Source: Sterolibacterium sp.
Lineage (GTDB): Bacteria; Pseudomonadota; Gammaproteobacteria; Burkholderiales; Rhodocyclaceae
Length of the DNA stretch: 33,277 nt
Reading direction: 5' to 3'
Assembly: GCA_018062105.1 (NCBI GenBank)
Contig: JAGOSV010000022.1
Coordinates: 1-33,277 of the forward strand
The stretch's first letter is position 1. Every line of letters begins with the position of its first letter. The translations under genes were made by a program, and so were the position numbers. The notes beneath the pieces were generated by a model, which saw nothing but the letters and a program-made list of their open reading frames with translations, was not told the origin of the DNA and ran no database searches. This document shows positions 122-9,631 of the stretch, piece by piece.

Positions 122-229
122 GTTAAGATGATATAAACTTGGTGTTTCCTTCCACGGTAGCGTGCTGGAATGGCCGGATAACGCAAATCACTGACCCACA
201 GTGCCTCGCACCGACTGCTTTTTTGAGTT

Positions 230-253
230 TTTTGAAAATCCTTTTGAAAATCC
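230..253 (+). repeat. Perfect 12-bp tandem duplication in the leader
   Basis: TTTTGAAAATCC occurs twice back to back, at 230-241 and 242-253. It is preceded by a T-rich run (218-229) and sits inside the candidate template RNA. The unit is a multiple of three and reads without stops in the minus-strand frame as the repeated residues DFQK. Confidence 0.9.
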
Positions 254-447
254 CGCCGCCTTCGTCGTTGTGATATTGAAGGCGCGTTTCCTGCTTCACC
301 CACTCACGGGAATCGGCTCGTGAGGTTTTACCTGTGCCTTGCGGCGCGGGTCTTTAAAGCATCTTTAAGCACACTTTGTTTTCTGCGGCGGTCGCCCCCG
401 CTTTTTCGGGCGGCTGTAGATCACTTCGGTGGTCCGAGTCTGTCGCA

Positions 448-511
448 AGGCAGGTTCTGAAGGTGGCAACATCCAGCGGCCGCAACAGGCTGGTGCCATC
501 TGCCTTTTTTT
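448..511 (+). terminator. Compound hairpin plus T tract closing the leader RNA
   Basis: Three nested helices line up: 448-453 with 500-505 (AGGCAG/CTGCCT), 464-468 with 494-498 (TGGCA/TGCCA), and 473-477 with 489-493 (CCAGC/GCTGG). A T tract (505-511) follows directly. This resembles a rho-independent terminator placed just before the ribosome binding site of the RT gene (GAGGAAGG, 514-521). It could set the 3' end of the leader RNA while letting some transcripts read through. The large internal bulge (454-463) makes it less regular than a standard terminator. Confidence 0.55.
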
Positions 512-528
512 GTGAGGAAGGATTTTCA

Positions 529-2076
529 ATGCGCGATGGTAGCGATGTTGGCCATGACAACAAGGACAACAAGGGCAACAAGGGCAACAAGGGCAACAAT
601 AACGACAACCGCAGCCCGGGGAATCAGGATGACAAGGGCAAACCGGCATTCGTCAGCAAGGCTTATGCGCATTTTGACCGGCCCCTCTCCCGCGAGAAGG
701 TGACGGCCCTTTTGTCTGCGCCGCAAAACGTGGCGCGTCATGCGTTCTGGCCCTTGATCCTGGATCCGGTCATGGTGGTGTCGCGCAAGACGGAAATCGG
801 ACAAAACGGGCAGCGTCGTTGGTCGCGCAAGCCCAGACCCATCGCGCTGGCCGCGCATGTCGATGCCCATATCCACGCGCATTACGCCGGGATTTTGTCG
901 CAACGGCTGGAGGCGCGTTATGCGGCCGCACCTGCCCTTTCCCGGGCGGTGCTGGCGTATCGCCGCTTTAAGTCTCCTCGCTGCAATGTGCATTTCGCAC
1001 TGGAGGCTTTCGAGGAAATCCGCCAGCGCGGGGCTTGTGATGTTCTGGCCCTCGATATCCGCAGTTTTTTCGATCATCTGAGCCATCGGCTGCTGAAAAA
1101 GGCGTGGAAGGATGTGCTGGGTTGCGATTCGATACCGGAGGATCATTACGCGGTGTTCAAGGCGGTGACCCAAAGCCCGGCCATCACTGTCTCGGCCTTG
1201 CGCGATATTTTCGGCGGTGAGATTCGTCGTCGTACCGGCCAAACGGGTGCGCGTATCTGTTCAACGGAGGAGTTTCGCCAGCGGGTCGCTCCTTTGCTGC
1301 GACCCTTGCCGGAGCTGGTCAGCAGCCTGACCGGGCGGGCGTTTCAGCCAGGGACGGGGATTCCGCAGGGGATCGCGATCAGTACGGTGCTGGCCAATCT
1401 TTATATGCTGGCAACCGATGAGCTTTTGCTGACGGAGTTGGGCGCGCTGGGTGGAAGCTATCGCCGCTATAGCGATGACATTCTGGTGATCCTGCCCACC
1501 GGGCAGGGTGCACAGGCTGAGGCGCGGGTCAAGCAGGCTGTGGCCGCAGCGGGGCTGGAAATTCATGATGGCAAGACGCGCCGTTACCGTTTTTCAACAG
1601 ACGTGGGCAATGGGCAGTCTTTCCAGATGGATGAACATTGGCAGATCATCGACCGGGGGGCCGTTTCCTATCTGGGCCTGAGCGATGACGGCCAGGCGGT
1701 TCGCATCCGGGAATCCACGATTTCGCGTTTCATGGAAAAGGCGACGGGGGCCGTGGAGCGTGCCCACATCGCCGCCGCCCGCCGGGATGATCCGCATCTG
1801 AGAAAGCGTCTGCTCTATACCCGTCTGACCCGTCTGGGCTATGGGCAGGCGTATGGGGAGCACTTCGATCCTTCGGGCATTCTGCCCAAGGGCGCGCCCC
1901 GGCTGGGTTTTTTCAAATACCTGAAACTGGTCGAGCGCGTCACCCAGAGCCCGGCCGTGCGAAAACAGGCCGCTCAGCTCGAAAACCGTGTGCATCGCCT
2001 GATCGCGCTGCATGAGGTACTGCTACAGAAGGAATTGCAGGAAAAAGCCCAGAAAAGGGCTGGGTGCGCAAGCTGA
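529..2076 (+). CDS. DRT-type (UG class, DRT2-like) antiviral reverse transcriptase
   Basis: RNA-directed DNA polymerase of 515 residues, resembling the defence-associated DRT/UG families rather than group II intron, DGR or retron enzymes. The start ATG at 529 follows GAGGAAGG by 7 bases; an earlier in-frame start at 376 has no such site. Residues 1-38 are a low-complexity Asn/Gly/Asp/Lys leader. Residues 45-165 (AYAHFD, KPRPIALAAHVDAHI, YRRFKSPRCNVHFA) resemble the N-terminal region I associate with Drt2-annotated proteins. Palm motif A is LDIRSFFDHL (175-184, Asp176), motif B is GIPQGIAISTVLAN (277-290), and motif C is YSDD (314-317). SYLGL (380-384) may be motif E. A basic, helical C-terminal thumb of about 130 residues follows. 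All catalytic Asp residues are present and no nuclease, maturase, nitrilase or integrase domain is fused. The RT class is firm; the DRT2 subtype is from memory, and DRT9 is an alternative. Confidence 0.85.
   Translation: MRDGSDVGHDNKDNKGNKGNKGNNNDNRSPGNQDDKGKPAFVSKAYAHFDRPLSREKVTALLSAPQNVARHAFWPLILDPVMVVSRKTEIGQNGQRRWSRKPRPIALAAHVDAHIHAHYAGILSQRLEARYAAAPALSRAVLAYRRFKSPRCNVHFALEAFEEIRQRGACDVLALDIRSFFDHLSHRLLKKAWKDVLGCDSIPEDHYAVFKAVTQSPAITVSALRDIFGGEIRRRTGQTGARICSTEEFRQRVAPLLRPLPELVSSLTGRAFQPGTGIPQGIAISTVLANLYMLATDELLLTELGALGGSYRRYSDDILVILPTGQGAQAEARVKQAVAAAGLEIHDGKTRRYRFSTDVGNGQSFQMDEHWQIIDRGAVSYLGLSDDGQAVRIRESTISRFMEKATGAVERAHIAAARRDDPHLRKRLLYTRLTRLGYGQAYGEHFDPSGILPKGAPRLGFFKYLKLVERVTQSPAVRKQAAQLENRVHRLIALHEVLLQKELQEKAQKRAGCAS
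556..609 (+). repeat. 9-bp tandem repeat inside the RT N-terminus
   Basis: Six 9-base units run from 556 to 609: GACAACAAG twice, GGCAACAAG twice, GGCAACAAT, then a degenerate AACGACAAC. They encode Asp/Gly-Asn-Lys triplets (DNK, DNK, GNK, GNK, GNN, NDN). Unit number can change without shifting the frame. Confidence 0.9.
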
Positions 2077-2141: not shown

Positions 2142-2522
2142 TCAAGCAGCAGCGGATAGCCTGGATGGGCGAATCAGGCTCTCGGCAGGGATTCCGAACT
2201 TCTCATGCAGTCGCCAGATCATATTGAGGGTCAGCGGACGCTTGTGATTCAGGATTTCATAAACACGGTTCAGACGACCGATGGCTGGCACCAAATCCTT
2301 CGGTGACAGCCCCGCTTGCTCCATGCGGAACTTGATGGCTTCCACCGGATCAGGAAGATCAATGGGGAAGTGCTTGGCCTCATAGGCTTCAAGCAGCGTT
2401 ACCAGCACATCGAACCGGTCTCCTTCCGGACTACCTGGCTCTGGCTCGTTTTCGAAATACGCTGATACCTCGCGCAGAACCGCGTGATAGTCGGCTTCGG
2501 TATGAATTGGGCGGATTTCCAT
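2142..2522 (-). CDS. higA: HigA-family antitoxin
   Basis: Antitoxin of a type II toxin-antitoxin pair, 126 residues. It binds the toxin and the shared promoter. The N-terminal half (MEIRPIHTEADYHAVL, then a stretch rich in Glu and Pro) is typical of the larger HigA proteins. The C-terminal half carries a Cro/C1-like helix-turn-helix (LSPKDLVPAIG, RVYEILNHKRPLTLNMI) of the kind that contacts DNA. I start it at ATG 2522, one base after the toxin stop, not at the earlier in-frame ATG that lies inside the toxin gene. The toxin-first order is the HigBA arrangement. It converges on the RT gene with a 65-base gap. Toxin-antitoxin pairs are common cargo of mobile DNA. Confidence 0.85.
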   Translation of the reverse strand: MEIRPIHTEADYHAVLREVSAYFENEPEPGSPEGDRFDVLVTLLEAYEAKHFPIDLPDPVEAIKFRMEQAGLSPKDLVPAIGRLNRVYEILNHKRPLTLNMIWRLHEKFGIPAESLIRPSRLSAAA

Positions 2523-2523
2523 C

Positions 2524-2829
2524 TCAGGGCTCCATTTCGACGGTTTCAGCGTCAATCAGATCGTACTCGGTGTGCGTGCCAATGAATTTCACGTAGATAG
2601 CTTGGAAGCGATAGGCCACCGAGAGCACTAGGCGATAGTCATTGCCCTTGATGTTGAATACGACCCGGCGGTTCTTCAAGATGCTGGCGCTTCGGTACTG
2701 CGCCTTGATGTCCGATGGCTGGCTCCAGTTCGCCTTCTTCACTTCATCCACCCATGACTTCAAGGGCTGCTCGGCATCCGGGTTGGATTCCCAGAAAAAT
2801 CGCAGGTAGCTGACGGCAATGATTCGCAT
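2524..2829 (-). CDS. higB: HigB-family mRNA interferase toxin
   Basis: Toxin of 101 residues matching the HigB_toxin family (RelE-like fold), which cuts mRNA on the ribosome. Family signatures are visible: MRIIAVSYLRFFWESNPDAEQPL at the N-terminus (split here across residues 1-22), RSASILKNRRVVFNIKGNDYRLV in the middle, and YVKFIGTHTEYD near the end. The conserved Lys/Arg and late His residues are present. I start it at ATG 2829, where family similarity begins; a longer frame reaching 2955 adds an unrelated Gln/Arg-rich leader. A promoter -10 box lies only 6 bases upstream of this ATG, so the mRNA may be nearly leaderless. Its stop is one base from the antitoxin start, so translation is probably coupled. 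Confidence 0.85.
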   Translation of the reverse strand: MRIIAVSYLRFFWESNPDAEQPLKSWVDEVKKANWSQPSDIKAQYRSASILKNRRVVFNIKGNDYRLVLSVAYRFQAIYVKFIGTHTEYDLIDAETVEMEP

Positions 2830-2835
2830 ACGGGC

Positions 2836-2865
2836 AATATAGTCCCAATCCGGGACAAAAGGCAA
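2836..2865 (-). promoter_or_regulatory. higBA promoter with embedded palindromic operator
   Basis: On the minus strand, TTGCCT (2865-2860) and TATATT (2841-2836) are separated by 18 bases. The spacer contains the inverted repeat GTCCC-GGATT-GGGAC (2842-2856) directly against the -10 box. A dimeric HigA bound there would block polymerase, the usual autoregulation of these operons. The predicted transcript start falls at or within a few bases of the higB ATG. Confidence 0.5.
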
Positions 2866-3167
2866 GTCACCTCGCTGTATCTGCCTTGAGGAATGCTTGG
2901 TCTGACATCTCAACTCCTGTTCGCGCTGTTCGCGCTGATCGTTTTGAACCTGCAATCACTGACTCTGACTGACTCTGCTGAGTCCCTACCAGGACAACGC
3001 TTGTCATCGTTAGATTTTCAAAACATCTGTGTGGATATTCCGATTTGTCCAGATTTGTCCAGATTGATCCCCTCCCGGGAATTTCCTTTGCCCCCTGTAC
3101 GACACCCTGAGTTCGCTCAGAGATTGAACACCCCTTCAATCCGCCAGAGTTTGGCTTGAATGCTATC
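2866..3167. other. Non-coding stretch rich in short tandem duplications
   Basis: No convincing gene lies between the higBA promoter and the helicase stop. I see three perfect tandem duplications. TGTTCGCGC is doubled at 2918-2935, ACTGACTCTG at 2958-2977, and GATTTGTCCA at 3042-3061. There is also a 5-bp hairpin with a TTCG loop (CTGAG/CTCAG, 3107-3120). The hairpin lacks a T tract on the helicase side, so I do not call it a terminator. The plus-strand frame here (88 codons) has no recognisable features. Confidence 0.6.
2918..3061. repeat. Three separate 9-10 bp perfect tandem duplications
   Basis: The doubled units are TGTTCGCGC (2918-2926, 2927-2935), ACTGACTCTG (2958-2967, 2968-2977) and GATTTGTCCA (3042-3051, 3052-3061). 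They are unrelated to each other in sequence, which points to repeated local slippage or repair rather than one repeat family. Confidence 0.85.
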
Positions 3168-4661
3168 CTACCCACTGAAGAAGTTTTCCGCGTTAACCAT
3201 GCACAGGCGTTTCTTGGCCCGGGTGATGGCGGTATAGACCCAGCGAAAGTGCGTGGTGCTGTGGCGGCCATCGAACCAGTGCGGCAAATCGACGATGATT
3301 TCTTCCCATTCGCCGCCTTGTGCCTTGTGGCAGGTCATGGCGTAGCCGTATTTGACGCGCAGGGCGTTGTAGTAAGGGTCGTCCATCAGTGCACGCATGA
3401 AAGCTCGGCTCTTCTTATTCAGATCCTTGTGGCGGTTACAAAAATGCACGAGGAGCGCGATGCGTTCGTTACGCATGAGTATGTTGTCTTCCCGATCCAG
3501 CAGATTTTCGAGAATCTTGCAGTTCTTTTTGGCGATTTCTCCGCTGGCCAGGCGGTAGACGAGGGTGACATCCCGAAAGCGCAAGGTGACCGGCCCGCCT
3601 TTTTGCAGGCGGATCGTGACATTTTCCGAGCGGGCTGAAAGCTCGCTGATTTTCACGAGATCGCCATTACTCATGCCATAAAGCGGGCAGTTCTGGTTGA
3701 TGAGCAGCAGCTCTCCTCGCACCAGTTCCGGTGCGGCTTCGCCACAAAGCTGCTTGCGAATGGCGGTGTTGTAGCCCAAGGCTTTGCCATTGCTGTGTGT
3801 GACGATGCTCGTGACCTTTCGGTCCCGGTACAGGCCCACATAGTAGGTGACGGCATCTTTCGATGAGAAGTAGCTGAGGCCCTCAGCCTCGTCAGGCAAT
3901 GGCGGTGCAACGCGCCAATCGTAACCCAGCGCATCCCGCAGACGGCTTGCCACATCGAGGATGCGGCTGCCATCCGTCTGGCGCATTACCTGATTCAGGC
4001 CGATTTCACACACTTGCAGACCGTATTTCCCGCGAAGATATTCCGCATCCAGTGCCGGCGAGCTTTGCTCCTTGACGGGCGGAAGCTGATTGTGGTCGCC
4101 TACGAAGATGAGTTTTCTGCGGATTTCTCCGTCTGTGCGGGCCAGGCTCATGCGGGTGTAGCGGAGCAGGTCATGCAGCACCCGGCCGGAACCAAATTGC
4201 AGGGTGGTCTGCTTCTGCTTCAGGTCGCCGAGCATGGAGGCTTCATCCACAATGGCAATCTGCCAGGAAGGCTCTTCGGTTTTCAGGGGGAAGTATTGGT
4301 GCAGCTCGTCTTGCACCTCCTCTGCCTGCAATTCGAATTCCTCCCGGGATTTCTCTTCGTCGAGCTCCAGTTGCGGCTCGCTGTAAATGCAGCTGTGCAA
4401 AGTGCTGCAAAAGGCTTTGTTTTCCTCGTCATCGCGTGCCGCGAGCTTCACGGTCAGCACACGCGCCGCCCGGGCTGTCGGGGCCATGAGCTGAACGCTT
4501 TTGTTCATGGAAAGAATCTGCTGCACCACTTCGGCAATCAGGGTCGTCTTGCCCGTGCCGGCACTACCACGCAGGATCAGCACGTCCTGTGCATCATCCT
4601 GAAGGAAGTCCAGAATGAAGGCGAGGGCTTGTTGCTGTTCCTGATTGAGCTGGATGGTCAT
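3168..4661 (-). CDS. Superfamily 1 (RecD/Pif1-like) ATP-dependent DNA helicase
   Basis: Helicase of 497 residues that probably unwinds DNA 5'-3' using ATP. Motifs are in order: Gln-rich start (NQEQQQAL), Walker A GSAGTGKTT (32-40), motif Ia APTARAA (60-66), Walker B DEAS (139-142), motif III GDHNQLPP (188-195), and VMRQTDGSRI for motif IV. Near the C-terminus are TCHKAQG (443-449) and YTAITRAKK (476-484), typical of the UvrD_C_2 fold of RecD, RecD2 and TraI helicases. There is no RecD2-type N-terminal extension, so it is a stand-alone core, as in phage (Dda-like) and plasmid helicases. AAGGA lies 9 bases before the ATG. It follows the pcfJ-like gene on the same strand after 115 bases. The cellular role is unknown; replication or repair of a mobile element, or defence, is possible. 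Confidence 0.8.
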   Translation of the reverse strand: MTIQLNQEQQQALAFILDFLQDDAQDVLILRGSAGTGKTTLIAEVVQQILSMNKSVQLMAPTARAARVLTVKLAARDDEENKAFCSTLHSCIYSEPQLELDEEKSREEFELQAEEVQDELHQYFPLKTEEPSWQIAIVDEASMLGDLKQKQTTLQFGSGRVLHDLLRYTRMSLARTDGEIRRKLIFVGDHNQLPPVKEQSSPALDAEYLRGKYGLQVCEIGLNQVMRQTDGSRILDVASRLRDALGYDWRVAPPLPDEAEGLSYFSSKDAVTYYVGLYRDRKVTSIVTHSNGKALGYNTAIRKQLCGEAAPELVRGELLLINQNCPLYGMSNGDLVKISELSARSENVTIRLQKGGPVTLRFRDVTLVYRLASGEIAKKNCKILENLLDREDNILMRNERIALLVHFCNRHKDLNKKSRAFMRALMDDPYYNALRVKYGYAMTCHKAQGGEWEEIIVDLPHWFDGRHSTTHFRWVYTAITRAKKRLCMVNAENFFSG

Positions 4662-4736
4662 GGTGTCTTGTCCTTGGCGGGTTGGAGATGGCCCGGCAGC
4701 TACCGGTACCCACTCAACGCCACGCGTTTCTGGAAT

Positions 4737-4750
4737 TTCAAACTTTTGAA
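4737..4750. promoter_or_regulatory. AT-rich palindrome between helicase and pcfJ-like genes
   Basis: TTCAAA-CT-TTTGAA is a perfect 6-bp inverted repeat in the 115-base gap between the two minus-strand genes. A T run follows on the plus strand only, the wrong side for terminating these genes. It may be a protein-binding site for helicase expression, or may mean nothing. Confidence 0.3.
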
Positions 4751-4776
4751 TGTTTTTTCAGGCGACATGGACAAAA

Positions 4777-5766
4777 TCAAAGGTTGAACACAAACTCTTC
4801 GTCGTACTTGGGCGTATTGTTTTGGCGCAGCCCGGAATTGCGTGCCTTTTTCATGGCATTTCGAACGGGATCCAGCGTCGTGTAGGCTTCTTCGAGGGCG
4901 TGAAGTACGGCGCAGGCGGCATTTTCGACTCGTTCGGAGACTGCCGCATTTTCTGTGCCCTTGATCTGTTCCATGCACCAGACACCCGGAGAAGTTTCTT
5001 TAACGGAAAGGGTCGCCACACGGCTGCCGGTTTGTGCATCGCGAATCGAATAAACCCGCAGCATTTCGTCCCGGCAGCGTTGGGCGTAAGTGCCGACACA
5101 ATGACGCATCGCCTTGCCTTCTTCGACCAGCTCCGCCTCGGTGCTCAGTGCCCGGATAAGATGTCCATCACTTTCAACCAACGTAACGAAGGAGGGCCAT
5201 TCTTCGCGTGCAGCGTTGATGGCCATCGCCGCCTTGTTCTTTTCCTGCTGGTGGCGATTCTGGATGACCGTCCAGCTTGCGTTGCGCCACCCGGGGCTAT
5301 TGTCCAGGTGCTGCTTGCTACGGAAATACCAGCGTGCAACCGGAACCAGCTCTTCACGGACGAAGGCATCGAGCGCACGATCGGCCGCTGGTCGCCCGGC
5401 GACCTGGTATGCAACCAGGTCGCAAGCCTTCCACAAGGCGCGAAAGAATCCGGCAGGAATCGCGCTCAATCCGGTATAGGCCAGCCCCCAGTGCGGCAAG
5501 GAAGCGAGCAGCCGGTAAGGCGGCAAAACATCCATTTCGCAGGATGCCAGCAGGCTCAGCAGGCTGGCGTAACAGGCTAGCCGCTTCTCGTGCGGCTTGT
5601 CATCCCAGGACCAGCCTTCGTCCAGCGGCTCGAAAATGCAATCGCCAAAGTCGGCATACAAACGCCAGCCGCGCGCATTCACGCCGCAGCCAGCCAGCTT
5701 CGCCTTGATCTGGCGAAAGTCGGTTTCTGGAATTTCCAGTATTTGGGCAATCCTTGTCTGGCTCAT
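4777..5766 (-). CDS. PcfJ-like protein
   Basis: Protein of 329 residues with a PcfJ-like domain in its C-terminal half. The most telling stretch is the Gly-Lys-Ala-Met-Arg-His-Cys-Val-Gly-Thr-Tyr segment (about 219-229), followed by YSIRD and RVATLSVKE, and then a short beta segment around WCMEQIKG. PcfJ was named for a gene of enterococcal conjugative plasmid pCF10, and homologues are common on plasmids, prophages and islands; no biochemical activity is established that I know of. The N-terminal half is helical, without membrane segments or signal peptide. ATG 5766 has no strong ribosome binding site; two ATCATG copies (5767-5772, 5779-5784) flank the position where one would be. With the helicase downstream it probably forms a two-gene accessory unit. 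Confidence 0.75.
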   Translation of the reverse strand: MSQTRIAQILEIPETDFRQIKAKLAGCGVNARGWRLYADFGDCIFEPLDEGWSWDDKPHEKRLACYASLLSLLASCEMDVLPPYRLLASLPHWGLAYTGLSAIPAGFFRALWKACDLVAYQVAGRPAADRALDAFVREELVPVARWYFRSKQHLDNSPGWRNASWTVIQNRHQQEKNKAAMAINAAREEWPSFVTLVESDGHLIRALSTEAELVEEGKAMRHCVGTYAQRCRDEMLRVYSIRDAQTGSRVATLSVKETSPGVWCMEQIKGTENAAVSERVENAACAVLHALEEAYTTLDPVRNAMKKARNSGLRQNNTPKYDEEFVFNL

Positions 5767-5938: not shown

Positions 5939-6015
5939 GCGCCCGTAGCTCAGTTGGATAGAGTACTTGGCTACGAACCAAGGGGTCGGGCGTTCGAATC
6001 GCTCCGGGCGCGCCA
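5939..6015 (+). tRNA. tRNA-Arg (anticodon ACG)
   Basis: A 77-base cloverleaf. The acceptor stem is GCGCCCG (5939-5945) with CGGGCGC (6005-6011), then discriminator G and encoded CCA (6013-6015). The anticodon stem CTTGG/CCAAG encloses loop CTACGAA with anticodon ACG at 5973-5975. GTTCGAATC forms the T loop. The first anticodon base would be edited to inosine to read CGU, CGC and CGA codons. tRNA-Arg genes are frequent island integration sites, but the accessory genes here lie on its 5' side and I see no second copy of its 3' end in the window. Confidence 0.97.
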
Positions 6016-7888: not shown

Positions 7889-9631
7889 ATGAAAAAAACC
7901 GGTGCCTGGCTGGCCGTCCATGCCCTCGAACAGCTGGGTATCCGCTGGACCTTCGGGATTCCCGGCGTCCATACCACCGAGCTGTATGACGAGCTCAACC
8001 GCTCGACACAAATCACACCCCTGCTCGTCAGCCACGAAGGTTGCGCCGCCTTCATGGCCGATGCCATCAGCCGTACCGCAGCCGATCATGGCAGCATCGG
8101 TGTTCTGGTGATCGTCCCGGCCGCCGGCCTGACCCACGCCGCCAGCGGTATCGGTGAGGCAAAACTGGCCGGTATCCCGCTGTTGATCCTCAGCGGCGGC
8201 ATCCGTACCGACCTCGACAAGCGCTTCCAGCTCCACGATATCGACCAGCTGGCGCTGGCAAAAGAGCTCACCAAAGCCGCCTTCCGCATCACCCGTCATG
8301 ACGAAATCATGACGACGATCTTTACCGCATACCGTATCGCCACCAGTGGTGAACCCGGCCCGGTACTAGTGGAGCTGCCCGTCAATCTGCAGCTGTTCCC
8401 CGGCCACGTCGACGTGCTGCCACACTGGCAACCACCTGCACCACCGCCCCCGCCGGATGCAACCCTCTTGATATCCGCCGTCGATCTGCTGCTCGCCGCC
8501 CGTCGCCCGGCACTCTATCTTGGCTGGGGCGCACGTCACGCCGTGGCCGAGAGCATGGCTCTGGCTGAAGCCCTGAAACTGCCCGTAGCCACCACACTAC
8601 AAGGTCTGGACGCATTTCCTGCCGATCACCCACTCCACGCCGGCTTCGGTTTTGGTACCTCGGCCGTACCCGCTGCACGCCATGCCTTCAAGGATTGCGA
8701 TTGCCTGCTGACCATCGGTGCCCGCTTCAGCGAAGTTGCCACCGGCAGCTACGGCATCCGTGTTCCGGCGCAGCTCATCCACGTCGACATCAACCCGGCG
8801 GTCTTCGATGCCAACTATCCAGCAAGCATCAAGATTGCCGCCGATGCCCTTGTTACCTTGCAAGGCCTCAATGAAGAACTGCGCCGCCGCGCCCTCACCA
8901 TCCCGTCCCGCACAGACCCGACCGCTGCCATTGCGAAAAACAAGCAGGCCTATCTCGACCAATGGCTCGCCCACGACAGCCGGGGCCGGGTTCATGCCGC
9001 ACGCTTCTTTGCCGAGCTGCGCCGCCAGTCGCCAAACGATGCCATCACCGTACTCGACGATGGCAATCACACCTATCTGGCAGCAGAGCTGTTCCCCATC
9101 CACCGGGGCGGACAGTTGCTGGTACCGACCGACTTCAACGCCATGGGCTATGCCGTCCCGGCCAGCATCGGCGCCAAGCAGGCCCAGCCGCAGCGTGAGG
9201 TATTCGCCATCGTCGGTGATGGCGGCTTCATGATGACCGGCATGGAACTCATTCACGCCGCCACCCGCCAGCTGGGCGTCGTGGTTTATGTGTTCCATGA
9301 CGGCGAGCTGGCACAAATCAGCCAGGCCCAGAAAATCCCCTATCGCCAGCAGACCTGCACCCGCCTGCCCCCTCTCAACCTGCAAGGTATCGCCCTGGCC
9401 ACCGGCGCTGCCTATATCAACCTGCCCAATGACGAAAGCATCGCAACAGCCATCCAGGAGGCCCGTCGCCTGTCACGGCAGGGACAACCCGTTATCGTCG
9501 ATGTCCAGATCGACTACCGCAAAGCCACCGCCTTCACCAAAGGCATCCTCAAAACCAATCTGCGCCGCCTCCCCATCCCGCAGCAGATCCGCATGGCCGG
9601 CCGCGCATTGAAGCGCCATTTCATCGAATGA
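7889..9631 (+). CDS. Thiamine-diphosphate-dependent enzyme, acetolactate-synthase-like
   Basis: Protein of 580 residues with the three-domain layout of acetolactate synthase, benzoylformate decarboxylase and relatives. The N-terminal domain has the cofactor-activating Glu in SHEG (Glu50). A central domain follows with GARFSEVATGSYG. The C-terminal cofactor domain has GDG (443-445) and MTGMEL. The canonical GDG-x24-NN motif reads GDG-x24-HD here (His470, Asp471, then GEL), so the usual metal-binding Asn is Asp. AAGGAG precedes ATG 7889 by 5 bases; an upstream in-frame start inside the previous gene is rejected. No acetolactate synthase small subunit gene is next to it, arguing against branched-chain amino acid synthesis. 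Pairing with a flavin dehydrogenase suggests a catabolic C-C cleaving or joining step, but the substrate is unknown. Confidence 0.85.
   Translation: MKKTGAWLAVHALEQLGIRWTFGIPGVHTTELYDELNRSTQITPLLVSHEGCAAFMADAISRTAADHGSIGVLVIVPAAGLTHAASGIGEAKLAGIPLLILSGGIRTDLDKRFQLHDIDQLALAKELTKAAFRITRHDEIMTTIFTAYRIATSGEPGPVLVELPVNLQLFPGHVDVLPHWQPPAPPPPPDATLLISAVDLLLAARRPALYLGWGARHAVAESMALAEALKLPVATTLQGLDAFPADHPLHAGFGFGTSAVPAARHAFKDCDCLLTIGARFSEVATGSYGIRVPAQLIHVDINPAVFDANYPASIKIAADALVTLQGLNEELRRRALTIPSRTDPTAAIAKNKQAYLDQWLAHDSRGRVHAARFFAELRRQSPNDAITVLDDGNHTYLAAELFPIHRGGQLLVPTDFNAMGYAVPASIGAKQAQPQREVFAIVGDGGFMMTGMELIHAATRQLGVVVYVFHDGELAQISQAQKIPYRQQTCTRLPPLNLQGIALATGAAYINLPNDESIATAIQEARRLSRQGQPVIVDVQIDYRKATAFTKGILKTNLRRLPIPQQIRMAGRALKRHFIE

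What the first reader, a model, noticed from the sequence alone, without database searches (positions are those of the whole stretch)
200..2076. DRT-type reverse transcriptase with its own structured upstream RNA
A 515-residue RT with intact catalytic motifs (Asp176, YSDD at 314-317) and a Drt2-like N-terminal region follows about 300 bases of gene-free, stem-rich DNA. In DRT2 and DRT9 an RNA encoded in this position is the template for unusual DNA products used in phage defence. The RT lacks any fused domain and has no partner enzyme gene beside it, so activity would depend on RNA plus RT. The stems and RT motifs are seen; the defence role is inferred. A betaproteobacterial member with a long Asn/Gly/Lys leader may be divergent.
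Basis: partly seen in the sequence, partly recalled or inferred. Interest (0 to 1): 0.85.

Follow-up and report, generated by a model that had tools for sequence, protein, structure and literature searches.

The report
DRT2 reverse transcriptase lacking visible neo
This is a divergent member of a known family of bacterial anti-virus reverse transcriptases, but the hidden toxin gene predicted in the RNA beside most of its relatives cannot be found here, so it either makes a different DNA product or has lost its function.

Summary
The RT is real, intact and a divergent DRT2 (PADLOC Drt2 E 1e-115; KpDRT2 structure E 2e-48; below NCBIfam's equivalog cut-off). It pairs with one 45%-identical relative, L015 (support 100/100), outside the Klebsiella-like DRT2 clade. 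The upstream RNA is only partly supported: the region folds no better than shuffles (z -1.15), but one block (443-464) is shared with L015's RNA (4 of 300 shuffles reach it). I then tested DRT2's hallmark, a template whose head-to-tail copies create a sigma-70 promoter and a stop-free neo frame. With one common test 27 of 34 homologs score at least 10/12 (28 of 680 shuffles) and 12 of 34 score 12/12 (0 of 680), L015 included. The window scores 8/12, as shuffles do, and has no TGTCAA (-35) site, which 29 of 34 homologs have. So DRT2 membership by protein stands, but DRT2's mechanism is not visible in this locus. Best reading: a DRT2 RNP whose template has lost neo; whether it makes short non-coding repeats or is decayed is open.

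The parts
529..2076 (+). DRT2-family reverse transcriptase, 515 aa, intact catalytic residues (D176, YSDD 314-317)
   Evidence: keeps 50 of 53 near-invariant DRT2 residues
529..642 (+). N-terminal Asn/Gly/Lys leader of about 38 aa, with no counterpart in the other eight aligned proteins; contains a 9-base tandem repeat at 558-599
303..325 (+). candidate 5' handle hairpin CTCACGGGAATCGGCTCGTGAGG (weak)
   Evidence: best of 7 matches of handle model R1 in 1-700 but only 6.6 bits, E 0.41, next match E 0.49; alignment to L020's handle not significant (103 of 300 shuffles); 303-324 was also flagged as terminator-like
326..409 (+). candidate template region between the handle and the 3' scaffold, if the handle is right (about 40-80 nt, against 87-150 in homologs); inference
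   Evidence: no junction promoter
351..368 (+). TCTTTAA-AGCA-TCTTTAA, an A-B-A' pattern like that of DRT10/telomerase templates (suggestive only)
   Evidence: 97 of 2000 shuffles of 326-384 have a repeat as long
340..390 (+). direct repeat TGCGGCG (340-346 and 384-390), 44 nt apart; alternative jump-motif pair, length not a multiple of 3
388..417 (+). predicted hairpin 1 of the 3' scaffold
419..434 (+). predicted UUCG hairpin GATCACTTCGGTGGTC, placed like a hairpin of L012 that I take for the buttress
   Evidence: analogy by eye
443..464 (+). block TCGCAAGGCAG..TCTGAAGGT shared with the scaffold of L015
   Evidence: local alignment score 25, 4 of 300 shuffles reach it
461..501 (+). predicted tower-like hairpin with GGCCGCA (478-484) at its tip, as in Kp-like DRT2 towers
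   Evidence: model R2 as a whole gives no significant match
505..511 (+). run of seven T after the tower-like hairpin, a possible 3' end of the RNA (inference)
   Evidence: not among the terminator-like sites
2524..2832 (-). HigB-type toxin gene (PF09907), convergent neighbour, not part of the system
   Evidence: E 8.1e-33

Best explanation
A divergent DRT2-family RT sits behind its own RNA gene. The RT probably binds the 3' part of the RNA (about 388-511) and copies a stretch 5' of it. In relatives this stretch is predicted to carry a permuted toxin gene (neo): the RT jumps from the template end back to its start at a short repeated motif, and the junctions create a promoter and an endless frame. 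Here the neo module (TTGACA/TATAAT junction promoter and matching stop-free frame) is not found. I think it most likely that the lineage lost neo after parting from L015 and that the RNP, if active, makes repeats of a shorter, non-coding template. Shown: DRT2 membership of the protein, intact RT residues, a predicted neo in L015 and most homologs, no recognisable neo here. Inferred: that the RNA is made, its ends, its template, any DNA product, any defence role. Rough odds: DRT2 protein 0.97; cognate upstream RNA 0.75; no canonical neo 0.85; active with a non-coding repeat product 0.35.
For: Protein: PADLOC Drt2 385.6 bits against 73.5 for the next group; KpDRT2 chain 9c0i E 2.1e-48; tree: window + L015 100/100 inside a DRT2 branch of 34 rows. 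RT not visibly decaying: 50 of 53 near-invariant residues kept; the 32 other homologs compared keep 47-52 of 52-56. Neo loss: strict test passed by 27 of 34 homologs at 10/12 or more, 21 at 11 or more, 12 at 12/12 (shuffles 28, 3 and 0 of 680; 420-base stretches of other RT loci 2, 0 and 0 of 136); window 8/12. A relaxed test with imperfect jump motifs finds nothing in the window. Exact TGTCAA in 29 of 34 homologs, none in 109-528 here. If the template covers 328-367, TAA at 365-367, 354-356 and 328-330 breaks all three frames of the neo strand. RNA: block shared with L015.
Against: The RNA is not proven: folding no better than shuffles, models R1 and R2 without significant match, no promoter found in 1-700. 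A neo with another promoter type cannot be excluded. The short-template signs are weak (97 of 2000 shuffles) and no handle of the 27 homologs aligns to the window better than shuffles (best 70 of 300, elsewhere in the window). Only one relative of the subclade is known and it has a predicted neo. The genome is a draft (156 contigs, 88.5% complete), so a local assembly error is possible.
Confidence: 0.4

Rival explanations
1. Decayed system: a deletion or drift destroyed the template, the RT gene remains intact only because the loss is recent, and the locus is inactive.
For: All recognisable neo features are gone although sister L015 has a full set; no promoter found upstream; RNA fold unremarkable.
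Against: RT open over 515 codons and 50 of 53 near-invariant residues kept; part of the scaffold conserved with L015.
Confidence: 0.3
2. A neo exists but is read from a promoter other than consensus sigma-70 or uses an imperfect jump motif, so the tests miss it.
For: Stop-free minus frames exist, e.g. 126-353 (228 nt) and 331-420; candidate units such as 215-331 (117 nt, CTG) or 341-409 (69 nt, GCGGC) keep a frame. Wilkinson et al. speculate on phage-specific promoters (PMC12039810 discussion). Some homologs with weak scores still look like neo carriers once imperfect motifs are allowed (L028, L021).
Against: A 228-nt open frame arises in 176 of 500 shuffles and its product is 32% hydrophobic, against 48-66% in most predicted Neo units. 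GC-rich homologs (L020, L029, L074, L075, L076) keep promoters of 10-12 of 12.
Confidence: 0.2
3. The RT acts on an RNA made elsewhere in the genome.
For: The local RNA lacks the hallmark.
Against: Own-genome search for TGTCAA, 65-126 bases, ATTATA gave 2 matches (reversed-pattern control 1), which I did not test further; it covers exact motifs only and the genome is 88.5% complete.
Confidence: 0.04
4. Ordinary DRT2 with a normal neo that the draft assembly has corrupted.
For: Draft genome of 156 contigs.
Against: A single error would not remove both promoter boxes and close all three frames (inference); the RT next to it is intact.
Confidence: 0.04

Closest known systems
DRT2 of Klebsiella pneumoniae (PMC12039810, PMC11100668)
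   Same: RT family and catalytic motif; single RT gene without partner enzyme; RNA-like region directly upstream; GGCCGCA at the tip of a tower-like hairpin
   Different: No ACA-flanked template, junction promoter or stop-free neo frame found; extra 38-aa leader; a C-terminal region shared with L015 rather than with Kp-like members; protein scores below NCBIfam's DRT2 cut-off
L015, DRT2 in a contig binned as Erysipelotrichia (JAAZFO010000208.1)
   Same: Closest RT found (45% over 466 residues); shares the 443-464 scaffold block
   Different: Has a predicted neo: 141-nt unit, jump motif TATTTATT, 12/12 promoter with 17-bp spacer; region folds better than shuffles
DRT10 (PMC12632851)
   Same: If the short-template reading holds: A-B-A' template behind a stable hairpin, tandem-repeat DNA
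   Different: The RT scores as Drt2; the PADLOC copy of 2023 shows no family called DRT10 among the 25 listed, so kinship to DRT10 was not really tested; the A-B-A' sign here is weak

Membership tests
DRT2 (UG2) | RT protein of the Drt2 family | tested here: met
   PADLOC 1.1e-115, PDB 2.1e-48, tree; but NCBIfam 336.6 bits is under the curated cut-off of 390
DRT2 (UG2) | Intact catalytic aspartates | tested here: met
   D176, D316, D317 on invariant columns
DRT2 (UG2) | No fused or partner effector protein | tested here: met
   (RT and its four downstream neighbours; the upstream side is cut by the contig end)
DRT2 (UG2) | Conserved structured ncRNA directly upstream (handle, template, scaffold) | tested here: inconclusive
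   Block shared with L015; models R1, R2 not significant; R2 finds L023 (E 0.00077) but not L015, L020 or L074, which pass the neo test
DRT2 (UG2) | Template flanked by a repeated jump motif, length a multiple of 3, stop-free antisense frame, sigma-70 promoter across the junction | tested here: not met
   Window 8/12, 27 of 34 homologs 10/12 or more; relaxed test 0 solutions
DRT2 (UG2) | Phage-triggered concatemeric cDNA and toxic Neo protein | not testable with these tools
   needs expression and phage
DRT10 | DRT10-type RT in a tripartite system | tested here: inconclusive
   Best PADLOC models are Drt2 and no partner gene was recognised, but no model named DRT10 was available
DRT10 | A-B-A' template behind a stable stem-loop | tested here: inconclusive
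   351-368, but 97 of 2000 shuffles reach it

The most novel reading that the evidence does not exclude
A DRT2 lineage that has given up gene synthesis: its RNA template has shrunk from a permuted toxin gene to a short non-coding repeat template (e.g. TCTTTAA-AGCA), so that the same RNP now makes telomere-like tandem repeats as DRT10 does, an independent switch between the two product types.
Probability: 0.17. Interest if true: 0.85.

Novelty: new variant of a known kind. Interest (0 to 1): 0.5.

Why it matters
Tang et al. reported that Neo was harder to annotate in more divergent DRT2 clades and left open whether those clades work otherwise (PMC11100668). The comparison here makes that testable: twelve homologs outside the Kp-like clade pass the neo test, none with ACA as the motif found, whereas this locus keeps the RT and shows no neo. 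A working neo-less DRT2 would show that the RNP can change its product; a dead one marks how the systems decay.

Tried and rejected
(1) A covariance model of the 3' scaffold (R2, 15 Kp-like sequences) to place the RNA: no significant match in the window, and none in L015, L020 or L074, so its silence says little; it does find L023. (2) Handle model R1: best match at 303-328, E 0.41, not significant; nothing when the whole window was scanned with default filters. (3) DNA pattern of the window/L015 block in viral contigs: one match, L068, inside a listed ORF and with no RT ORF of 120 aa or more in its first 4 kb, rejected as chance. (4) Sense-strand neo: window best 9/12, 20 of 40 shuffles as good. 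(5) Trans cassette in the own genome: 2 matches against 1 in the control, not pursued. (6) Closer relatives: nothing above 45% identity in the plasmid, phage, viral-contig and genome-contig scans or the genomes searched; no DNA match in plasmids; three short DNA matches in 180 genomes lie in or beside the leader's simple repeat. (7) Structure prediction: job lost, so the fold was not tested.

Rows dropped before the counts: of the DRT2-like loci fetched, L026, L034 and L091 (same contig as L010), L011, L027 and L092 (one contig, cut at the 5' end), L019 and L070 (no start motif found by my pattern), L022 (second half of the broken gene in L021). Plasmid records: searches matched 26 and 28; nine were fetched and eight used. 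Of the phage records (3 in each) none was fetched. The upstream stretch was 420-446 bases (L029 266). L021 was left out of the tree, L021 and L013 of the residue count. 7 of 34 homologs fail the strict test (L013, L021, L025, L028, L071, L073, L077). Of these, L028 and L021 have a solution with an imperfect jump motif and 11/12; L071 has 12/12 with a 16-bp spacer but a hydrophilic frame; L077 has an open frame that ends like L035's, no junction solution; L013, L025 and L073 stay unclear. L072 passes at 10/12 but is a weak case. In single-region shuffles L024, L025, L035 and L036 are reached by 3-7 of 40, so the scores of 10 are not firm one by one. The test was designed after seeing the published mechanism and L015, and lengths, spacers and thresholds were varied. 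The jump motif of each homolog is the one the scan chose, not one shown by experiment.

Full report
OBSERVATION. The reverse transcriptase gene is as described: ATG at 529 with a good ribosome site, 515 codons, stop at 2074-2076. Its catalytic residues D176 and Y314, D316, D317 are invariant in a nine-sequence alignment. The leader of Asn, Gly and Lys holds a 9-base tandem repeat and has no counterpart in the other eight aligned proteins. The roughly 300 bases upstream hold mechanical ORFs only. The claim that they are rich in stems does not survive a control: 140-520 folds with z -1.15, 12 of 100 shuffles as good.

WHAT THE PROTEIN IS. PADLOC gives Drt2 at 1.1e-115, the next group at 73.5 bits. 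NCBIfam's Drt2 model matches at 336.6 bits, under its curated cut-off of 390, so it is a divergent member. The solved KpDRT2 chain matches residues 38-413 at 2.1e-48. In a tree of 39 proteins (34 DRT2 rows, 5 other RTs) the window pairs with L015 at 100/100; the pair stands next to L020, L074 and L075 at 86/82, under the tool's mark for firm support, and outside the 17-row Kp-like clade. A member of that clade, L033, matches the KpDRT2 chain at 4.9e-169. Of 53 positions near-invariant in the other homologs the window keeps 50; the 32 others compared keep 47-52 of 52-56. The RT therefore looks maintained.

HOW DRT2 WORKS. I read, in PMC12039810, the outline, the first part of the main text, sections 7, 8 and 10, the first part of section 9 and the figure legends, and in PMC11100668 the outline, section 5 parts 1 and 2, section 10 and found passages. 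A central stretch of the upstream RNA is copied again and again; the RT jumps back at two ACA triplets; the antisense copy carries TATAAT near one end and TTGACA near the other, so only the junction of two copies makes a promoter with 17-bp spacing, and one frame runs through all copies without a stop (neo).

TEST FOR NEO. In L015 I saw TGTCAA and ATTATA in the right order but no ACA. With a longer repeated motif, TTTATT (extended to TATTTATT by the scan), as jump site, the unit is 141 nt, a multiple of 3, one antisense frame is open and the junction promoter is a perfect 12/12 with 17 bp. I then scored all usable homologs: direct repeat of at least 3, unit 81-198 nt and a multiple of 3, open antisense frame, 17-bp promoter over the junction. 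Of 34 homologs 27 reach 10/12, 21 reach 11/12 and 12 reach 12/12; of 680 dinucleotide shuffles 28, 3 and 0 do; of 136 stretches of 420 bases from other RT loci 2, 0 and 0 do. Twelve of the 27 stand outside the Kp-like clade and none of these twelve has ACA as the motif found: they include CGTT (L020, L074, L075), TCGT (L018), GAAG (L076), ATTG (L017) and AGTATTA (L038). The window reaches 8/12, 38 of 40 shuffles did as well. A relaxed search with imperfect jump motifs and 15-20-bp spacers gives no solution in the window; it gives none in L077 either. Exact TGTCAA is found upstream of 29 of 34 homologs and nowhere in 109-528 of the window; the only stretch there with one mismatch, TGGCAA at 464, lies in the tower-like hairpin. 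Since L015 has a predicted neo and, more distantly, L020, L074 and L075 too, loss in the window's lineage is the simplest reading.

WHERE THE RNA WOULD BE. 443-464 aligns to L015's scaffold with 4 of 300 shuffles as good; of the 27 homologs compared the next best is L020 with 30 of 300. The heptamer GGCCGCA at 478-484 equals the conserved tip of the Kp-like tower. A hairpin at 303-325 resembles the 5' handles by eye and is the best match of handle model R1 in 1-700, but at E 0.41 and hardly better than the next, 497-527 at 0.49; by plain alignment no homolog's handle matches the window better than shuffles (best 70 of 300, at another place). If 303-325 is the handle, only some 40-80 nt are left for a template, whereas homologs have 87-150. 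That short stretch holds TCTTTAA-AGCA-TCTTTAA, a pattern like the A-B-A' template of DRT10 (PMC12632851; abstract, outline and section 8 seen), but 97 of 2000 shuffles have a repeat as long. I found no promoter in 1-700 by consensus scan.

SURROUNDINGS. Downstream lie a convergent HigB-type toxin gene, a RecD-like helicase gene and a PcfJ-like gene up to tRNA-Arg at 5939-6015, then housekeeping genes (the housekeeping names are recalled from the translations, not searched). This looks like a mobile island beside a tRNA gene, a usual home of defence genes (recalled); no 14-base piece of the tRNA recurs elsewhere in the window.

VERDICT. By protein it is a DRT2; the feature that defines how DRT2 works was tested and not met. 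It may still work like a class 2 DRT, by copying its own RNA into repeats, but nothing here shows it. In print: three library searches (6 of 6 papers listed, 15 of 704, 12 of 373) listed no paper whose title or shown start of abstract describes neo-less DRT2s or non-ACA jump motifs; most subscription papers and the supplements of the two DRT2 papers were not seen. PMC12596737 (abstract, outline, section 17) and PMC13174585 (passages) add nothing on this point in what I saw.

Noticed in passing
L015:626-766; upstream of the RT in L020, L018, L074, L075, L076, L017, L038: Divergent DRT2 homologs carry a predicted neo with a 17-bp junction promoter but jump motifs other than ACA, and units of 129-150 nt. 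This may resolve the trouble with Neo annotation in divergent clades.
   Followed up: partly
L074:1177-1311 and L075:1177-1305: Annotated minus-strand hypothetical proteins of rhizobial plasmids lie upstream of the RT, about where the predicted neo template lies; they may be single-copy readings of neo, not genes (overlap judged by eye).
   Followed up: no
window 558-599: 9-base repeat, in frame, coding Asn-Lys-Gly units in the RT leader (4.7 copies, 96% matches), possibly variable in copy number.
   Followed up: no
window 230-253: Exact tandem duplication TTTTGAAAATCC x 2 upstream of the RT.
   Followed up: no
window 2142-5766: HigB-type toxin gene with putative antitoxin, RecD-like helicase and PcfJ-like protein beside tRNA-Arg (5939-6015): probable mobile island holding the DRT2 gene.
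   Followed up: partly
window 9340-9437: ARAGORN tRNA-Ala call inside listed ORFs on both strands, not found by the Rfam tRNA model; probably spurious.
   Followed up: no
   Followed up: no
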